This document shows, one piece after another, positions 14,147-27,870 of a stretch of 46,716 nucleotides of DNA. Source of the DNA: Salinicola peritrichatus (GTDB lineage Bacteria > Pseudomonadota > Gammaproteobacteria > Pseudomonadales > Halomonadaceae). The notes beneath the pieces are model-generated. The model was not told where the DNA came from. It did not search any database and was given only the letters and a program-made list of their open reading frames with translations. The DNA lies in contig NZ_PZJU01000009.1 in the NCBI RefSeq assembly GCF_003206715.1, positions 1-46,716 of the forward strand. The letters run 5' to 3'. The position numbers and the translations under genes are program-made. Every line of letters starts with the position of its first letter. The stretch's first letter is position 1.

Positions 14147-14489
14147 CTACTTCATAACCGCCAGCACACGCCGAAACTCCTCCCGCCAAGCCTCGGCATG
14201 CCGCGCTGGGGTGGCGGTAAGCCGCCCCAGTTCCATCGCCAGATCGAAGAAGCCCTGCGCCGGTAGCCTTCCCCGTGCCGGCTGACGACCAGCACGGCGA
14301 TGAATGGCCGGTTCTGTTGTGCATCCTCGCGCATCAGGATTCTCAGTGCCTGCGCCACGGGCTGGATGGTGCGTGGCGGGTGTAGCTCCAATGCCTCGGC
14401 AAGTTGCTGGTAGGTCAGCGGTAGGGCTTCGCGAGGCGCTGCCTTGAGAAGCGGCGAATCTGAATGGGCAGTGACTGATTCTCGGTCAT
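14147..14489 (-). pseudogene. Frameshifted small hypothetical gene (about 113 codons)
   Basis: Reading from an ATG at 14489, MTENQSLPIQIR runs out of phase. A plus-or-minus one shift restores LLKAAPREALPLTYQQLAEA and then HPPRTIQPVAQALRILMRED. A second shift near 14250 (after VSRHGEG) restores LPAQGFFDLAMELGRL and ends WREEFRRVLAVMK plus stop. The rebuilt protein has consistent coding character and resembles short conserved hypothetical proteins of alphaproteobacteria and gammaproteobacteria; no function is known to me. The start lies five bases after the stop of the YciI fragment, so the two were probably once an operon. Confidence 0.65.
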
Positions 14490-14494
14490 GATTC

Positions 14495-14649
14495 TCAGGC
14501 GTTCGGGTCGAAGAGTTTCACTTCGCGGATATCGACGTGCTCCCACACCCGCCCGGTCATGTAAGGCTAGGTTTCGAGCCAGGCATCCAGATCCTGTTGT
14601 TCGGTAAAGCTGAGCCGTGGCACCAGGTACTCATCCGTGCCAGAATTGA
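14495..14649 (-). pseudogene. C-terminal half of a YciI-family protein, with an in-frame stop
   Basis: The minus-strand frame reads GTDEYLVPRLSFTEQQDLDA, then WLET, a TAG stop (14567-14569), and PYMTGRVWEHVDIREVKLFD followed by PNA and TGA. The LDAW...DPY/QPY...TGxVWE...I pattern is the C-terminal half of YciI-like ferredoxin-fold proteins. The N-terminal half is missing. A YciI gene lacking exactly this end lies on the same strand at 15202-15438, with the toxin-antitoxin pair in between. The TAG replaces a likely CAG (Gln). Non-functional. Confidence 0.7.
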
Positions 14650-14676
14650 ATGGTATGTCAACGAGAGGTCTCTTCC

Positions 14677-14901
14677 ATGAATCTTCAGAAAATTGAAGAC
14701 GAGGCGCTCCATCTCCCCAAGGAGGAACGGGCACAATTGGTCCAGCGACTGGTGTTGAGCCTGGAGTCTCCGTCAGAAGAAGAGCTCAGGTCCGACTGGC
14801 TGCTTGAGGCTCGACGCAGGGCCGAAGAGCTAGATAGTGGCTCGGTTCAGGCTGTGTCCGGTGAGGATGTTATGAGGAAGGCCAAAGCTCTGATCAAATG
14901 A
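14677..14901 (+). CDS. Type II antitoxin, addiction-module component family
   Basis: Small acidic protein of 74 aa: MNLQKIEDEALHLPKEERAQ, then LVQRLVLSLE and a charged C-terminal tail. This is the pattern of the addiction-module component family (Unstab_antitox, TIGR02574-like) that pairs with ParE/RelE toxins. The ATG at 14677 has GAGAGG upstream and is preferred over an ATG at 14650. The stop overlaps the toxin start by four bases (ATGA), so translation is probably coupled. Antitoxins of this family usually repress their own promoter. Confidence 0.85.
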   Translation: MNLQKIEDEALHLPKEERAQLVQRLVLSLESPSEEELRSDWLLEARRRAEELDSGSVQAVSGEDVMRKAKALIK

Positions 14902-15191
14902 ATTATTCTTTTCACCCGGCAGCGGAAGCCGAGTTCCTGGAATCAGTTGGTTATTACGAATCAAAGGTTCCGGGATTGGGTGGTGCCTTCATGGAGGAAT
15001 TCGAAGCCTTGGCTAAATTAGTTGGCGAGTCACCAAAAGCCTGGCAAGTGGAGTTGTCTCCAGATATTCGTAGAGCACCCCTTCACCGATTTCCGCTATC
15101 CATCGTTTACCGAGAAAAGTCTGATGGCTTTCAAGTTCTGGCGGTTGCCCATGACCGGCGACGTCCGCAGTACTGGCTTGGCAGGCTTTAA
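14898..15191 (+). CDS. RelE/ParE-family toxin
   Basis: Protein of 97 aa from the RelE/ParE superfamily. It begins MNYSFHPAAEAEFLESVGYY, has the central helix GLGGAFMEEFEAL, and ends with RRAPLHRFPLSIVYREK followed by AVAHDRRRPQYW. This arrangement (YxFHPxAxxE, RxxxxxxFPyxIvY, hxxRxPxYW) is typical of ParE-like toxins that act on gyrase or RelE-like mRNA endonucleases; the target is not decided by the sequence. It follows the antitoxin with a four-base overlap. The module sits exactly where a yciI gene is split. Confidence 0.85.
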   Translation: MNYSFHPAAEAEFLESVGYYESKVPGLGGAFMEEFEALAKLVGESPKAWQVELSPDIRRAPLHRFPLSIVYREKSDGFQVLAVAHDRRRPQYWLGRL

Positions 15192-15201
15192 CCAGGACTA
15201 C

Positions 15202-15438
15202 CTATTTTTCCAATAGGGAAATTGGCCAGGCATCCAGCTCCTGCCTGTCGGCAAAGCGAAAGTGAACGCTGGAGCCGATCATCTTGCCGTCATCGTTCAG
15301 GATCGCGCCGCCACTGATAAATTTCCCCTGCTTGGCGAGCTCACGAACTCCTGCCAAATGCGCTTCGCGATGGGCCAGCCGGCGTTCGAGCGCTTCATCG
15401 TCCGTGTAGTCATAGGCCACTATGACGTACTGTTTCAT
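15202..15438 (-). CDS. YciI-family protein, C-terminally truncated
   Basis: The first 73 or so residues follow the YciI family: MKQYVIVAYDYTDDEALERR, REAHLAGVRELAKQGKFISG, GAILNDDGKMIGSS and RQELDAW. After LDAW the family would continue into a DPY...TG.VW... strand, but here the frame runs into PISLLEK and stops. The product is 78 aa instead of about 95-100. AGGAG precedes the ATG at 15438, so the stub may still be translated. A short inverted repeat, CCTATT-tttcc-AATAGG (15201-15217), covers the foreign tail. Probably inactive. Confidence 0.75.
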   Translation of the reverse strand: MKQYVIVAYDYTDDEALERRLAHREAHLAGVRELAKQGKFISGGAILNDDGKMIGSSVHFRFADRQELDAWPISLLEK

Positions 15439-15624
15439 GCGGTACTCCTGTCGTTTCGTGGTTCATCGAAGGTGACTCGCATCATGCGTCAGCCCCCGTG
15501 ACGAAACAAATCTGTCTTGACGGTACAATCTCTCCAATTCCACAGAAGGTAGGTGCTGAGCCGATAGTCACTGAACGTCACGAACATTTCACTCTGATCA
15601 CAACGTACAAAAGGCCAAATTCCC

Positions 15625-22588: not shown

Positions 22589-23368
22589 TCAATAAGGAGA
22601 ACAAACGGGCCTTCCAATCAAATGGTGCAACGAACTGACTTCCAAAGCATATTGCACTGTTAGATCTTCTTTTATTACAGCATAGAGTTGTCTTACAGAT
22701 TCACGTAATTCATTTTCAGCATTTCTCTGATCAATATAAAAAGCAGCCCTTTGACCACGAAACTGCATAGGCCGGCTCACCTGTTCAAATTTTAATCCCG
22801 TTCTGGCCAGTAAGCGATAGAAGCGGTTTTCCATCATGGCCAATACGTGATGTCTTTGCGCAATCCCCGTCAGAGCGGTCGCGCAGAGGAACAGGCTGAC
22901 GCCAATCAACGGAAACACACGGCGCTCCTGTTTGGTGAATACTAACTCACCCAGGCCAGTAACGGCCGACTCTCTCTGCTTGTGCATTTGAGTACGGAAA
23001 TATCGAGGTATCGCAATTCGAGAAATTTCACATAGACTATTACGATCGATTGATCTGCGTCCCCACTCGACGACGGCATCAAACTGACGGCAATGCTCCT
23101 CGATTGGCAGTTGAGAAAATTTGGCTGAGGAAGCATCGGGAATCACGACCCGCATACAACCGGCAGCCAGTCCGGTAGATCGATGCTCAATCAAGCAATG
23201 AAGAGATCGCGTATCGAACTCATCCCTCTCGATACGATCTTTGAGATTGAGAGGTTCATACCCCAACTCTTCACAATAAACTTGATGCCGCAGCGAGAAA
23301 ACACGATCTTTCTCATCTGCTGTTGTTGCCAAAATGACCTGAAAACGATCCAGGAATTCATCTATCAT
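22589..23368 (-). CDS. PEP-CTERM/exosortase-associated acyltransferase (LuxI-superfamily)
   Basis: Protein of 259 aa resembling the PEP-CTERM/exosortase system-associated acyltransferases, a branch of the LuxI/N-acyl amino acid synthase superfamily. LuxI-type signature residues are visible in order: RHQVYCEELGY (Arg, aromatic), ERDEFDTRSLHCL (Glu-x-Asp-x-x-Asp), AGCMRVV (Arg) and CEISRIAIPR (Glu-x-Ser-Arg). It is the last gene of a four-gene operon, 23 bases after the GGDEF-EAL gene, with an AGGGGG ribosome site. No exosortase or PEP-CTERM protein is in the window. Base composition is clearly lower in GC than the flanking genes. The product could be an N-acyl compound used as a signal or surface modification; this is inference. 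Confidence 0.8.
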   Translation of the reverse strand: MIDEFLDRFQVILATTADEKDRVFSLRHQVYCEELGYEPLNLKDRIERDEFDTRSLHCLIEHRSTGLAAGCMRVVIPDASSAKFSQLPIEEHCRQFDAVVEWGRRSIDRNSLCEISRIAIPRYFRTQMHKQRESAVTGLGELVFTKQERRVFPLIGVSLFLCATALTGIAQRHHVLAMMENRFYRLLARTGLKFEQVSRPMQFRGQRAAFYIDQRNAENELRESVRQLYAVIKEDLTVQYALEVSSLHHLIGRPVCSPY

Positions 23369-23391
23369 TGCAGCCCCCTGCCCTTTGGTTA

Positions 23392-26211
23392 TTAACCAAA
23401 CCCGGCGTCTGAAATAGTTGTCGGTCGACCTAAGTAATATCCTTGGACATAGTCGATTTTGTATTTTTCTAGATAGGGCAATATGGATTCTTTATCGACA
23501 AACTCGGCAACGATCTTTTTACCCATACCCCTAGCAATATCAGCTATCGCTTTGACGATTAATTGATTTTCTTCGCTATCTGGCAATGCCCTGATGAAAG
23601 AGCCATCAATCTTGATGTAATCCGCCGGGAGTTGACCCAGGTAATAAAAACTACTGAACCCGACCCCGAAATCATCCAGGGCCACTTGGCAACCCAGCAT
23701 TCTAATACTTTCAAGCACACCTCTAGCCGCTGTGAAATCGGTTACCGCTGCGGTCTCCGTGACTTCAATAATGAGACGTTTGGGCTCGACCTGATGGCGG
23801 TCAAATTCGCGTTTCATGAAATCCGTGAGCCCAGTGTCATGCAACGATTGACCCGAAAGATTGACAGCAAGAACGGCGTTTTTTGAGGATAATCGGGATA
23901 TCAGTCCGATACCGTTAGACAATACCCATCGATCAATGGCAACGATCTGGCCGCTTCGCTCCGCAATGGGAATGAAGATAGCCGGAGACAGATATATCCC
24001 GTTCTCGTCTTTTAGGCGAAGAAGAAGCTCGTAATGCTGCACATTCAAATCCGATAGTCGAAAAATAGGTTGAACCATTAATTCGAACTGATTATTCAAT
24101 AGCGCATTGCGGATATTCTCGACCCAATATATTCGTTGCTTCAGCTCTTCCCGACCTTGCTGTTCCGGCGACAAAAGGTGCCAGCGCTGCCCTGCGTCTT
24201 CCTTCGCCCGGTACATGGCATAATCGGCATTCGCCATCAATTCGTCAGGATGGTCACCGTTATCGGGATACAGAGCCACACCAATACTCGCGCTTGCCCT
24301 ATGTACACGTCCTTCTATACTCAAGGTCTTTTGCTCCAGACGATCGGCAATTCTTTGGGCCATCTCGGTCGCTGTCTGTTCTGAGGCATTTTCTAGCAAG
24401 ATGGCAAATTCGTCCCCACCCAGCCGGGCCACGATATTGCCGTGACTCAAATCTGCCAACGCCGTGGCAACAGCGCGAAGCAGCTGATCACCAGATTGAT
24501 GCCCACTGGCCTCGTTCACTTCCTTGAACCGATCGAGATCCAGATAGAGTACCGCGCCGAAAGCTCCTGGAATTACCGCTCGTTGCAAGGCCTCCTTGAA
24601 AAAGCGTCGGTTATACAGTTCCGTTAGCGGATCCCGGTTGGCTAACCAAGCCAGCCGGCGTTCAGCCAACTTCCTATCCGTGATATCGACTCCTACCGAA
24701 ATAAGTTCCTGCCTACCAAGTTCCTCATACTGCAAAGGGGTATGATACCATACAATGACTTTGACCTCGCCATCACTCGAGGCTACATCACTCTCTTGTT
24801 GTCCACCATTATCAAAAAACTCATCGATACGAACCAAGTCCAAGTCCGCGGCAAACAGCTGTTGAAAAGTGCTTTTTTTTAGTTCCTGCTCAGACAACCC
24901 TGTGATAGCCTGACAGAAATGATTGGCTAAGGTAATATTGCCGCAGCGATCATGAATTACGATCAACACCTGAGCCGTATTAAAAAGCCCGGAAACGAAA
25001 TCTCTTTCTCTTGCCAGCTCCCTGACCCTAGCTTCGAGTTCAGTACCTCGCTTACTAACCTCTATCTCCAGCTCTTCAAGTTTGATTTCCAAATCAATCG
25101 CAGTGCTTTCTAATACATCAATCTCATCCTGAAAGAATGATCTGCTAGGGGCAAGCTCGCTCCGCATGACGTTATATCTACGATTAGCCAAAAACGGTAA
25201 CTTCTGGCTAATATTTTTCAATCGATTCATGCGGTACCGCAAGATAAAAAATAGAAGGATCTCAGCTGCTATCCATCCACCCAAGGCAATCAACAACACC
25301 GTACGAGTCGTTTGTGAAATAGACTTCACTTGGTCGGTAACGTTAGAAATCAACACAAAATAGCCGGAGTGATCGTCAACTTCATCTCCTTCGCCTTCTA
25401 TCGGTATCGCGATAACCTCGTATTCTCTTCCCGATTCAGAATAACGATAAACCTTGCCGTTAATATTTTCGAAACTGGCACTATTGGAAATTCCTTCAAT
25501 AAGCGGAAAACTGCTCGACTCATGCGTCAGCGCTACTATGGTAGAATTCCAATTCGCAATGTAACGCTCAGCTTTATCCGGATGCTTTTTCGATCTGACC
25601 AATAATGCAATTTCGCTTCCGGAGCTTTTTTGCATATATCGAGTCACATCAGCCAGCGACCTGGACACCATCACTACACCGGCGTTCGTTCCCTTCACAA
25701 GGATGGGAACGGCCATGTATTGTCGGCATTCATGATGACATAGTAGTTTTGTATCCGGTTGTTCCATTTCTATGACTGATTTTAACCAATCAACCCCCAG
25801 TTCTTTTCCCGTGTCTGAAGTCATTTGGCCTATGCTGACGATTTTCACCATATCCTTGTTATATATACTGACGTCATCGATCCCAGCATCTAATTGGAGT
25901 GTTGGCCACTGGGATTTCAAAGAAGCTTCGATACTCGACACATCGGCCGCTAGCAAAGCCGACCTCAAGGTTGATGAAGAAGCGATGACACTTGCTATTT
26001 GACGCATGCTATCTGCGGAACGCTGCAAAGTTAAAAAAACGTCATGTCTTTGGCGTTCATAAAATATTTTCTGTGAATAATTAAACTGTTGAACCAGCGC
26101 ATGATTACTCACCCAGGCAATCAGGCTTGCCAAAGCCAACAGCAACAAACTGGTCAAAAACAGGGCTCGCCATTTAAGTCCTATCTGGACGACTCTCTTG
26201 TGACATCTCAT
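23392..26211 (-). CDS. Membrane sensor with PAS, GGDEF and EAL domains
   Basis: Protein of 939 aa. A first membrane helix (about residues 15-34) and a second near 300-325 enclose a periplasmic sensor domain of about 265 residues, probably a Cache-type fold. A coiled-coil linker (about 375-410), a PAS domain (about 415-525), a GGDEF domain with intact RLGGDEF near 597 and an EAL domain from about 705 follow. EAL residues present are YELLLRL, AVNLSG, IIEVTET, LDDFG, IKIDGSF, AEFVD and QGYYLGRP. The position of the inhibitory RxxD site reads SHGN, so product inhibition is probably absent. Both c-di-GMP synthesis and breakdown are possible. Low-GC gene; 35 bases after the porin gene. Confidence 0.93.
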   Translation of the reverse strand: MRCHKRVVQIGLKWRALFLTSLLLLALASLIAWVSNHALVQQFNYSQKIFYERQRHDVFLTLQRSADSMRQIASVIASSSTLRSALLAADVSSIEASLKSQWPTLQLDAGIDDVSIYNKDMVKIVSIGQMTSDTGKELGVDWLKSVIEMEQPDTKLLCHHECRQYMAVPILVKGTNAGVVMVSRSLADVTRYMQKSSGSEIALLVRSKKHPDKAERYIANWNSTIVALTHESSSFPLIEGISNSASFENINGKVYRYSESGREYEVIAIPIEGEGDEVDDHSGYFVLISNVTDQVKSISQTTRTVLLIALGGWIAAEILLFFILRYRMNRLKNISQKLPFLANRRYNVMRSELAPSRSFFQDEIDVLESTAIDLEIKLEELEIEVSKRGTELEARVRELARERDFVSGLFNTAQVLIVIHDRCGNITLANHFCQAITGLSEQELKKSTFQQLFAADLDLVRIDEFFDNGGQQESDVASSDGEVKVIVWYHTPLQYEELGRQELISVGVDITDRKLAERRLAWLANRDPLTELYNRRFFKEALQRAVIPGAFGAVLYLDLDRFKEVNEASGHQSGDQLLRAVATALADLSHGNIVARLGGDEFAILLENASEQTATEMAQRIADRLEQKTLSIEGRVHRASASIGVALYPDNGDHPDELMANADYAMYRAKEDAGQRWHLLSPEQQGREELKQRIYWVENIRNALLNNQFELMVQPIFRLSDLNVQHYELLLRLKDENGIYLSPAIFIPIAERSGQIVAIDRWVLSNGIGLISRLSSKNAVLAVNLSGQSLHDTGLTDFMKREFDRHQVEPKRLIIEVTETAAVTDFTAARGVLESIRMLGCQVALDDFGVGFSSFYYLGQLPADYIKIDGSFIRALPDSEENQLIVKAIADIARGMGKKIVAEFVDKESILPYLEKYKIDYVQGYYLGRPTTISDAGFG

Positions 26212-26246
26212 TGGGCGTGCCTTTTAGCCAAACTCATTTTTTATCT

Positions 26247-27443
26247 TTAAAAAAAGTATGACAGCTGAAAAAGAAGCATATCCCAGTATTTATCTTGGGA
26301 GTCAGACTGGTTTTCATTAATTACTGGAAGCCATCCTGTTCCTTTAACATGATGAAGCTCAGATGATAGCAGTAGCCGGGGATATAGCTGCCATTGCAGG
26401 CCTGTTGTCCAATCCCTGGCATACCTCGAATAGGTCGGCTGACCAGTTTTATCAGCAAACTCCCGACCCGAACGATCACTACGGTCTATCACAAGAGAAT
26501 CGTATCTGAGCAACCATTGCCATTTTTCACTAAGCCTCCGCGTGAATTGCAGGTACCAGCTTTCTCCCGTAATGTCGTAATTGTAGGATTCTTTGAATCC
26601 ACTCATTACGATGGGACGGATAGCGTATTCTGTAGTCAGTGACCAGTTTTCCTGATTATATTGGAAGGACAGAATCCAAGGCTTAAAAGTAAAACCACCA
26701 TCGCCCGGCCCCGACTCTTTCGAATTAAATCCGGCACGGACATTTACATTGGTCAGCGCCATGATGGCAGTACCGCCGCCATACTCATATCTCAGCTGGC
26801 CGATGTAGGAGGATTTCCCTGAAAAATTGCCAGTATCTTTCCTTCCTAGAAGGGAGCCTTCGACCTGACTATCGAACCGCGGTTCCCCGAAACCGAGTTG
26901 CAGTCTGACAACACCGTTATCCAGGCGTTTCTCGGCATAGCCCATTATGCCGTCCGCGGTCAGTGCTGGCGTTCTCGTACGATCGAAATAGATGGACTGT
27001 GGTAACAATATACTTGGGCGTGTAGCGGCAACGTCGCGGGTTTGATTGTATAAACCGAATGGGTTTTTAAAACGTCCAAATTGGGCGCCTATCGTGCTCT
27101 CTTCATTGGTTAAGAACTGGTAGTCAACGATTCCATAATCGAGCTCTGGCTCGGTGAGTTCTTCGTCACTTCCCGCCTGCCGAGATAGTACTTGCGCTCC
27201 CACGAGAACGTTGCTCAACGGCCGAAAAGACGCATTCAATCCCAGTTCGGTATATTCCCAACTCCCCCCACCTTCACTACTCGGGCCGAAGAAGTCGTTA
27301 TGATCAGTGATGATCAGTGCCTGACTCAGGAAGCCATGCATCTGCAGCGTATCCGACACTTCAAGAGCGTGGGCTCGGGGTAAAGCCATCAATGTCATGC
27401 TGGCCCCGAGCGCGACAGCAGACAAGCGAGTCAATCTATTCAA
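26247..27443 (-). CDS. Outer-membrane beta-barrel (porin-like) protein
   Basis: Protein of 398 aa with a signal peptide ending in PRAHALEV and a beta-rich mature chain with alternating hydrophobic residues. It closes with WDMLLFQLSYFF, the terminal-Phe signal for outer-membrane assembly. The order DTLQMHGFLSQALI, then AQFGRFKNPFGLYNQTRD, resembles uncharacterised gammaproteobacterial porin-like proteins. The start is a TTG at 27443 that overlaps the stop of the upstream gene by eight bases, with AGGTG upstream, so its translation is probably coupled. The cargo, or a non-transport role in sensing, is unknown. Confidence 0.82.
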   Translation of the reverse strand: MNRLTRLSAVALGASMTLMALPRAHALEVSDTLQMHGFLSQALIITDHNDFFGPSSEGGGSWEYTELGLNASFRPLSNVLVGAQVLSRQAGSDEELTEPELDYGIVDYQFLTNEESTIGAQFGRFKNPFGLYNQTRDVAATRPSILLPQSIYFDRTRTPALTADGIMGYAEKRLDNGVVRLQLGFGEPRFDSQVEGSLLGRKDTGNFSGKSSYIGQLRYEYGGGTAIMALTNVNVRAGFNSKESGPGDGGFTFKPWILSFQYNQENWSLTTEYAIRPIVMSGFKESYNYDITGESWYLQFTRRLSEKWQWLLRYDSLVIDRSDRSGREFADKTGQPTYSRYARDWTTGLQWQLYPRLLLSSELHHVKGTGWLPVINENQSDSQDKYWDMLLFQLSYFF

Positions 27444-27870
27444 CGCTGAGCACCTGAACCTGATTATTCAGACTGGATTGTTTGACATAGCCGATACCAC
27501 CAGGCGTGGAAGCGACGGCCTCGAGCATGGCTGTCTCATCGGCTACCTCGTTGGGTGCCTGTCCAGTGCCGGAAAAGACCGCCCGGTCCCATGCCAACCT
27601 GAGTTGGTGCGGATAGACGCCGAGGATTCTCTTCGAGAAATCCTCATGAATGGGGTTATTGTCGGATAGGACGAAGACATGAACGGCCTGTCCCCCCGGT
27701 AGCGTTCGCTGCCGCATGGCGAAAATCGCTCTGACGGTCTCCAACGGTAAGGACGCCTGATTCACGGTGGGGTTGGTGATCACCAGGACCGTCGAGTCAT
27801 CGCCATGACTCGACAAGGAGCAGAGCACCGCTGCCGCCAACAGCAGCCAGCCGCTTAGAAGCCGCAGCAT
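27436..27870 (-). CDS. Small PstS-like periplasmic binding protein
   Basis: Protein of 144 aa with a signal peptide (LLSGWLLLAAAVLCSLSSHG) followed by a reduced phosphate-binding-protein-like fold: TVLVITNPTVNQASLPLETV, RAIFAMRQRTLPGGQAVHVF, then FSKRILGVYPHQLRLAWDRA and STPGGIGYVKQSSL. This is the short PBP-like family with one lobe and a half, much smaller than transport PstS. GGAG lies nine bases before the ATG at 27870. First gene of the four-gene operon; a role presenting a ligand to the sensor encoded downstream is plausible but unproven. Confidence 0.82.
   Translation of the reverse strand: MLRLLSGWLLLAAAVLCSLSSHGDDSTVLVITNPTVNQASLPLETVRAIFAMRQRTLPGGQAVHVFVLSDNNPIHEDFSKRILGVYPHQLRLAWDRAVFSGTGQAPNEVADETAMLEAVASTPGGIGYVKQSSLNNQVQVLSVE

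What the first reader, a model, noticed from the sequence alone, without database searches (positions are those of the whole stretch)
22589..27870. Lower-GC operon joining a PstS-like protein, an outer-membrane barrel, a PAS-GGDEF-EAL sensor and a LuxI-superfamily acyltransferase
Four minus-strand genes are packed with an 8-base overlap and 35- and 23-base gaps, so they are probably one transcript. The order is secreted ligand-binding-like protein, outer-membrane barrel, two-helix membrane sensor with complete c-di-GMP domains, and an enzyme with LuxI-type residues (RHQVY, ERDEFD, CEISR). The acyltransferase family is normally tied to exosortase clusters, yet none is seen here. The last three genes are clearly poorer in GC than the flanking genes, suggesting transfer as a unit. 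Inference: an envelope signal tunes c-di-GMP, and the enzyme makes an acylated signal or modification in the same circuit.
Basis: partly seen in the sequence, partly recalled or inferred. Interest (0 to 1): 0.9.

Follow-up and report, generated by a model that had tools for sequence, protein, structure and literature searches.

The report
Matched acyl-enzyme and membrane-barrel gene pair
In salt-loving bacteria a four-gene operon links an enzyme of the type that makes fatty signal molecules to an outer-membrane barrel and a c-di-GMP switch, and the enzyme and the barrel tend to be exchanged together between relatives, as a signal and its matching receptor would be.

Summary
In detail: four minus-strand genes at 22589-27870 with an 8-base overlap and 35- and 23-base gaps. 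The order is conserved in 117 of 121 loci read in the family, which is Halomonadaceae by a named Halomonas match. The acyltransferase is TIGR03694, yet 0 of 275 family genomes have an exosortase over cut-off, against 45 of 50 acyltransferase-bearing genomes elsewhere. The first three genes form a wider module in the order, with no acyltransferase beside it in the 34 copies read there.

The unexpected result is evolutionary. Among 96 pairs of loci with near-identical flanks, the acyltransferase is either kept (33) or replaced by a distant allele (63), and the middle of the barrel goes the same way in 93. The sensor gene between them often stays conserved, at silent sites too where checked. In the window's genus the block from early barrel to acyltransferase stop exists as two deep allele classes at one locus. 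'Transfer as a unit' therefore becomes 'repeated allelic exchange of matched parts'.

Best reading (inferred, about 0.5): the enzyme makes an acylated molecule, probably an N-acyl amino acid, that the matching barrel recognises, with the PstS-like protein and dCache-GGDEF-EAL sensor turning it into c-di-GMP. The product is untested.

The parts
27436..27870 (-). PstS-like secreted protein, about half the size of a phosphate-binding protein, with a conserved R-x3-S-G-T stretch
   Evidence: 38-row alignment (R96, S100, G101, T102 invariant); PBP_like_2 in 32 of 38 at E<=1; likeness of the stretch to the PstS phosphate site is recalled
26247..27443 (-). outer-membrane beta-barrel, weakly porin-like, ends in Phe
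26436..26972 (-). barrel middle (residues 158-336): hypervariable part that switches with the acyltransferase
23392..26211 (-). membrane sensor dCache_3-PAS-GGDEF-EAL; GGDEF and most EAL motifs kept, no RxxD I-site
25333..26028 (-). dCache_3 periplasmic domain (residues 62-293) with an invariant cysteine pair
23422..24642 (-). GGDEF (524-673) and EAL (698-930) domains
22589..23368 (-). TIGR03694 (LuxI superfamily) acyltransferase, replaced over its whole length between close relatives
22589..27213 (-). approximate extent of the block that exists as two deep allele classes in the window's genus (from about base 230 of the barrel gene, as seen in L135 against L146, to the acyltransferase stop)

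Best explanation
A polymorphic self-recognition circuit. The acyltransferase joins a fatty acyl chain to a small acceptor, most likely an amino acid, giving a strain-type-specific lipid (inferred from family). The product leaves the cell and is recognised or admitted by the outer-membrane barrel, whose middle part sets the specificity (inferred from co-switching). The PstS-like periplasmic protein and the dCache domain pass occupancy to the GGDEF-EAL protein, which changes c-di-GMP (inferred from anatomy). An enzyme of one type must meet a barrel of its type, so the two are replaced together (shown as a pattern), while the relay parts are more often kept (shown for the PstS-like gene and, in most close pairs outside the window's genus, for the sensor; inside the genus, and in a few pairs outside it, the sensor switches too). 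The circuit grew from an older three-gene module, PstS-like, barrel and GGDEF-EAL, to which the acyltransferase was added in the Halomonadaceae.
For: Same four-gene order in 117 of 121 loci. Acyltransferase in 168 and barrel in 170 of 275 family genomes, both in 166 (compared by hand). Exosortase over cut-off in 0 of 275 against 45 of 50 elsewhere. In 96 pairs with both flanks at least 85% identical, acyltransferase identity is bimodal: 63 below 60%, none at 60-70, 33 at 70 or more; its rank correlation is 0.88 with whole-barrel identity, 0.64 with sensor, 0.25 with flank. Barrel middle goes the same way in 93 of 96 pairs; in 29 pairs using each locus once, 14 of 14 kept and 14 of 15 switched (Fisher 2e-7). 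Partial Mantel acyltransferase-barrel middle 0.68, 0 of 500 permutations as high; barrel ends 0.03 and -0.01, PstS -0.09, sensor 0.17. A more diverse set of sensor columns gives -0.04. Silent sites: L120/L234 sensor 81-90%, PstS 74%, barrel ends 60-64%, barrel middle 24%, acyltransferase 27%. FastTree trees of acyltransferase and barrel middle share 26 splits absent from the backbone tree. Precedents: N-acyltyrosine synthases with a C-terminal domain modelled on a c-di-GMP-binding PilZ protein (PMC4897644); FadL helps sense long-chain AHLs (PMC5977203).
Against: No product, binding or c-di-GMP measurement exists. L227 switched its acyltransferase without its barrel middle against L207 and L208, and L245/L268 also disagree. 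Some barrel-middle types (20, 21, 26) go with several acyltransferase types. The sensor too has a small partial correlation with the acyltransferase, 0.17, 0 of 500 permutations as high, and in five of the 15 independent switched pairs it switches as well. The barrel-middle limits and the cut-offs were chosen after seeing the pairs. In the enzyme-free control the barrel middle is less variable at sensor identities of 60-85% but not at 40-50%. Three-gene modules without the enzyme beside them are common in the order, so the trio has a use without it.
Confidence: 0.5

Rival explanations
1. Matched uptake or export, not signalling: the product is a surfactant, chelator or exported lipid and the barrel is its dedicated pore, as with siderophores and their receptors (recalled); the sensor only reports traffic.
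For: Same lock-and-key pattern; weak likeness of barrel to porins and of the small protein to PBP; an N-acyltyrosine synthase gave a surface-active phenotype (PMC4897644, passages).
Against: The other conserved partner is a c-di-GMP enzyme; no transporter gene lies in the operon.
Confidence: 0.2
2. Antagonism: the product harms strains of other types and the matching barrel protects or exports.
For: Polymorphic matched pairs are typical of toxin and immunity loci (recalled); some N-acyl amino acids are called antibiotics in titles cited by PMC7293339 (reference list seen).
Against: The GGDEF-EAL sensor is kept in the module, with GG[DE]EF in 116 and DDFG in 117 of 117; the trio exists without the enzyme beside it.
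Confidence: 0.1
3. Phage or predator pressure varies the barrel surface, and the acyltransferase changes by linkage or by an unrelated pressure.
For: Surface loops of barrels are common phage targets (recalled); types change often on the backbone tree (46 changes for 34 acyltransferase types); at sensor identities of 40-50% the barrel middle is as variable without the enzyme as with it.
Against: The enzyme has no surface part by family (recalled), lies beyond a 2.8-kb sensor gene and changes more than the barrel; sensor silent sites stay at 61-92% in the 11 sensor-conserved switched pairs checked; at sensor identities of 60-85% the excess change in the barrel middle is 7-8 points without the enzyme (20 pairs) against 18-21 with it.
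Confidence: 0.1
4. One reading: a fixed envelope or phosphate sensor tunes c-di-GMP and the enzyme makes an acyl product as output, with no recognition of that product.
For: Gene cluster, domains and phosphate-protein likeness; domain modelled on a c-di-GMP-binding protein fused to such synthases (PMC4897644).
Against: Does not predict joint switching of enzyme and barrel middle.
Confidence: 0.1

Closest known systems
Pherotype loci such as pneumococcal comC-comD (PMC5629823, passages); agr and comQXPA recalled
   Same: signal-making and receptor parts polymorphic and concordant
   Different: here an acyltransferase and an outer-membrane barrel in Gram-negative bacteria with a c-di-GMP sensor; no peptide, no histidine kinase in the operon
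PEP-CTERM/exosortase-associated N-acyl amino acid synthases (TIGR03694; Craig 2011 not held, known from citations seen)
   Same: same family model over cut-off
   Different: no exosortase or PEP-CTERM match over cut-off in the genome, and linked to a sensor trio
Nas343/Nas354 N-acyltyrosine synthases with PilZ-like domain (PMC4897644, passages)
   Same: acyl synthase tied to c-di-GMP
   Different: there by fusion to a domain predicted by homology modelling, here by operon with the c-di-GMP enzyme and a barrel
AHL quorum sensing with FadL-assisted perception (PMC5977203, passages)
   Same: LuxI superfamily and a barrel helping to sense long-chain acyl signals
   Different: no canonical LuxI found in the genome and no FadL family among the 11 Pfam families that barrel members match

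Membership tests
TIGR03694 exosort_acyl | score over the curated cut-off | tested here: met
   194 bits against 112
PEP-CTERM/exosortase system | exosortase in the genome | tested here: not met
   own genome best 17.2 bits, cut-off 25.7; 0 of 275 family genomes over cut-off, one match below it at E 2.8e-4 in another genus; 45 of 50 positive elsewhere
PEP-CTERM/exosortase system | PEP-CTERM proteins in the genome | tested here: not met
   best 13 bits, cut-off 20.7; short model, weak test
LuxI-type AHL synthase | Autoind_synth match in the range of true LuxI | tested here: not met
   29 bits for this protein, over the cut-off of 24 but far below the 65-163 bits of other family matches; 13 of 181 family genomes have a match over 60 bits, none of the 18 of the genus
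[quoted passage not shown]
   E114 and R117 invariant in 40 rows, E[IVL]SR in 112 of 117; sequence profiles reach AHL synthases in the PDB but list no FeeM; structure prediction never ran
FeeM-type N-acyl amino acid synthase | makes N-acyl amino acids | not testable with these tools
   needs mass spectrometry
PstS phosphate-binding protein | full two-lobed protein over Pfam cut-off | tested here: not met
   144 aa; 18 bits of 27
Polymorphic signal-receptor (pherotype) locus | synthase and receptor alleles switch together | tested here: met
   93 of 96 close pairs, with the barrel as presumed receptor
Polymorphic signal-receptor (pherotype) locus | product activates only its own receptor type | not testable with these tools
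   needs cross-feeding experiments

The most novel reading that the evidence does not exclude
A lipid pheromone system of a kind I know of nowhere else, in which an outer-membrane barrel is the type-specific receptor and c-di-GMP is the output: a LuxI-superfamily acyltransferase and the middle of the barrel form a lock and key with 34 enzyme types by one clustering, re-paired by homologous exchange across a family of halophiles.
Probability: 0.4. Interest if true: 0.95.

Novelty: new variant of a known kind. Interest (0 to 1): 0.85.

Why it matters
If true, Gram-negative bacteria have a pherotype-like language built from acyl lipids, read at the outer membrane and written into c-di-GMP. It gives the exosortase-less acyltransferases of halophiles a role, explains a hypervariable barrel by its partner, and supplies natural swap experiments: close relatives that differ mainly in matched enzyme and barrel parts. 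It also bears on a stated puzzle: Halomonas elongata and Chromohalobacter salexigens were reported to produce AHLs while no luxI gene was identified in their genomes (PMC4187203, passages). Whether those two strains carry this operon was not tested.

Tried and rejected
Exosortase cluster elsewhere explaining the enzyme: rejected. Recent gain by this strain: rejected. Co-switching as a single long tract that carries the sensor along: fits the window's genus and two further independent pairs (L246/L256, L116/L239), but not nine of the 15 independent switched pairs, where sensor protein identity stays at 83-96%. In the eight of those nine checked, sensor silent sites are 61-92% identical against 24-46% in the barrel middle and 24-39% in the enzyme (20 of the 96 pairs or their like were given to it, 14 switched and 6 not; the numbers of sites are small in barrel middle and enzyme). 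Co-switching as an artefact of two fast genes: a faster set of sensor columns shows nothing. Flank silent sites are usable only where homologous reading frames were picked (rows with amino-acid identity of 20-31% are mis-picks), so flank identity is taken. Rfam scan of the window: nothing at gathering score. PDB search with the barrel: one match at E 0.0058 to a chain named tumour necrosis factor ligand, taken as chance. Promoter and terminator scans: no clear excess. Papers: ten searches, several with capped lists (for example 20 of 52, 20 of 1,295 and 10 of 252 shown), listed nothing that by title or abstract start describes this operon or the co-switching; most subscription papers are not held.

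Rows dropped: L147 (100 bases, my error), L125 (broken frames; also L120 from the barrel and sensor alignments A2 and A4, because no start was found for its sensor), L128, L142 and L248 (genes missing on truncated stretches) from the pair analysis; L067 from alignment A5 (a stop in the range); A5 took 59 of the 80 loci. Only 50 of 80 loci were given.
Full report
WHAT IS THERE. Four minus-strand genes at 22589-27870: a small secreted PstS-like protein, an outer-membrane barrel, a 939-residue sensor with dCache_3, PAS, GGDEF and EAL domains, and a 259-residue acyltransferase of NCBI family TIGR03694, 194 bits against a cut-off of 112. G+C falls from 0.58 in the first gene to 0.49, 0.46 and 0.46 in the next three, against 0.63 in the flanks. 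The drop is common but not universal: over 118 loci the acyltransferase lies more than 0.03 below its flanks in 98, the barrel in 73, the PstS-like gene in 49 and the sensor in 45.

HOW WIDESPREAD. The genome (4.6 Mb, 109 contigs) belongs to a family of 275 held genomes. TIGR03694 is found in 168 of them at E<=1e-5, 159 over cut-off, and the barrel in 170 at E<=1e-20. Comparing the two lists by hand, both occur in 166, the barrel alone in four and the acyltransferase alone in two (both weak). I read 121 family loci: the window, one named record and 119 stretches fetched around acyltransferase matches, so the sample is conditioned on the enzyme. Of these, 117 have all four genes in the same order and strand. 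The named record is Halomonas sp. PA16-9 (L194); its flanks are 97% identical to those of L126, a locus of the window's family, so the family is Halomonadaceae. No genome of 275 has an exosortase over cut-off; one has a match below it. The same search finds one over cut-off in 45 of 50 acyltransferase-bearing genomes from other groups, and no PEP-CTERM match over cut-off is seen in the window's genome. The family's acyltransferases lie on one side of a branch against 59 others in a FastTree tree; the others came from a search that may leave out near relatives.

AN OLDER TRIO. In the order, 47 of 390 genomes have the barrel, 32 of them outside the family. I read 40 stretches from those 32. In 34 a relative of the sensor lies beside the barrel, each with a PstS-like gene, in L185 in another order, and none of the 40 stretches has an acyltransferase match. 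Some of these genomes carry TIGR03694 elsewhere, for example G326, G319, G574 and G618. Two of the 34 sensors (L178, L179) end before GGDEF and EAL, and L164 lacks the motifs. At class level 12 of 151 genomes, own included, have the barrel. The acyltransferase is therefore best seen as an addition to an older PstS-like, barrel and sensor module.

THE SURPRISE. Within the window's genus the operon sits at one site: downstream flank shared with 16 of 16 and upstream flank with 11 of 16 relatives. Yet the last three genes fall into two classes. L135 and L146 share 99% of the next gene's protein and 96% of the PstS-like protein, but only 55%, 47% and 33% of barrel, sensor and acyltransferase. In 300-base windows their DNA is mostly 83-97% identical upstream (with dips to 67-78) and 91-92% in the PstS-like gene. 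It stays near 90% to about base 230 of the barrel, falls to 43-65% from there to the acyltransferase stop, and is back at 90% within the next 50 bases. Reading the identity tables, all 17 loci compared have the three genes in the same class. Next-gene plus PstS data reject class A as a clade (p 7.5e-5), and acyltransferase and barrel data reject the species group L134, L135, L144, L146 (p below 1e-56); these groups were named after the tables had been seen.

In other genera the exchange is more local. Among 96 pairs with both flanks at least 85% identical, acyltransferase identity is bimodal: 63 below 60%, none between 60 and 70, 33 at 70 or more. Of 57 pairs with acyltransferase under 50%, 37 have a sensor at least 83% identical and 14 have one under 65%. 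In those 37 the barrel differs mainly in residues 158-336, where 15-residue windows are 27-78% identical against 84-100% in the other windows after residue 23. The sensor stays within about 9 points of unswitched pairs except in its last 30 or so residues. Barrel middle and acyltransferase agree in 93 of 96 pairs. With each locus used once, 14 of 14 kept and 14 of 15 switched; with flanks at least 82%, 16 of 16 and 19 of 20. Silent sites show that the sensor was not replaced in such pairs: in L120/L234 they are 81-90% identical in the sensor, 74% in the PstS-like gene and 60-64% in the barrel ends, but 24% in the barrel middle and 27% in the acyltransferase. In some pairs, such as L238/L255, the barrel's end is replaced too. 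Two separate stretches, with the 2.8-kb sensor gene between them, are thus exchanged in concert.

CONTROLS. Partial Mantel over 117 loci gives 0.68 for acyltransferase against barrel middle with PstS, barrel ends and sensor held (0 of 500 permutations as high), 0.03 and -0.01 for barrel ends and -0.09 for PstS. The sensor keeps a small 0.17, also beyond all 500. With ranks and quadratic terms the first value is 0.53, and it is -0.04 for a set of sensor columns more diverse than the barrel middle. FastTree trees of acyltransferase and barrel middle share 26 splits absent from the backbone tree, against 5 and 11 for the other two combinations. Barrel-middle types need 40 changes on the acyltransferase tree (least possible 38) and 51 on the backbone. 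In trios without the acyltransferase the barrel middle exceeds the ends in change by 7-8 points, with it by 18-21, at sensor identities of 60-85% (20 enzyme-free pairs, not independent). At 50-60% the gaps are 10 and 15, and at 40-50% both are 13, so this control supports the reading only among closer relatives. Limits: the barrel-middle borders and cut-offs were set after seeing the pairs, pairs are not fully independent, and L227 (two pairs) and L245/L268 break the rule. Whole-barrel identity, with no borders chosen, still correlates at 0.88.

HOW IT MOST LIKELY WORKS. The enzyme's LuxI-type residues are invariant across 40 rows (R27, E47, D49, D52, R73, E114, R117); in the larger set E[IVL]SR is found in 112 and E.D..D in 116 of 117, so most types are probably active. 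Sequence profiles reach AHL synthases among solved structures. [quoted passage not shown] passages only). An N-acyl amino acid is therefore the best guess. Joint replacement with the barrel middle suggests that product and barrel must match. The relay to c-di-GMP rests on anatomy: a periplasmic PstS-like protein, a dCache domain with an invariant cysteine pair, and GGDEF and EAL domains (GG[DE]EF in 116, DDFG in 117, KIDG in 114, my pattern for the EAL signature itself in 90 of 117; no I-site). Shown: conservation, absence of exosortase over cut-off, exchange, co-switching. Inferred: product, recognition, direction of signalling, output.

COMPARISON. It works like a pherotype locus (comC-comD concordance in PMC5629823, passages) but shares none of its parts. 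It is not an exosortase-associated system (tested, not met) nor canonical LuxI quorum sensing: 13 of 181 family genomes have a LuxI match over 60 bits, none of the 18 of the genus. A c-di-GMP tie of such enzymes and a barrel aiding acyl-signal perception each have a precedent. The ten searches made listed no paper on the combination.

Noticed in passing
L277 and L278 (genomes G242, G221): Operon with a 701-residue sensor that ends after GGDEF and with no acyltransferase match behind it: EAL half and enzyme are missing together.
   Followed up: partly
L134 against L146, sensor gene: A stretch of roughly 900-1,200 bases in the sensor's N-terminal half is 99-100% identical while most of the rest is 85-91%, suggesting recent exchange of the sensory part alone.
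   Followed up: no
L125 (genome G222): Barrel and sensor frames are broken in this copy; the assembly is 86% complete with 6% contamination.
   Followed up: no
L178, L179: Trio members whose sensor ends after the PAS region and lacks GGDEF and EAL.
   Followed up: no
L190, L191, L192: Barrel relatives in another arrangement, in L191 two barrels around a PstS-like gene, without an adjacent sensor.
   Followed up: no
order-level trio sensors (L154-L189): 20 of 34 lack a GG[DE]EF motif while 31 of 34 keep DDFG, so outside the family many may act as phosphodiesterases only.
   Followed up: no
five acyltransferase loci outside the family: L008, L012, L020, L036, L047: Acyltransferase-bearing genomes with no exosortase match, among them two Hydrogenophaga; other settings without exosortase may exist.
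   Followed up: no
window 14325-15624: About 1.3 kb with no ORF of 120 aa or more and lower G+C (0.54-0.57 in 1-kb windows) between genes.
   Followed up: no
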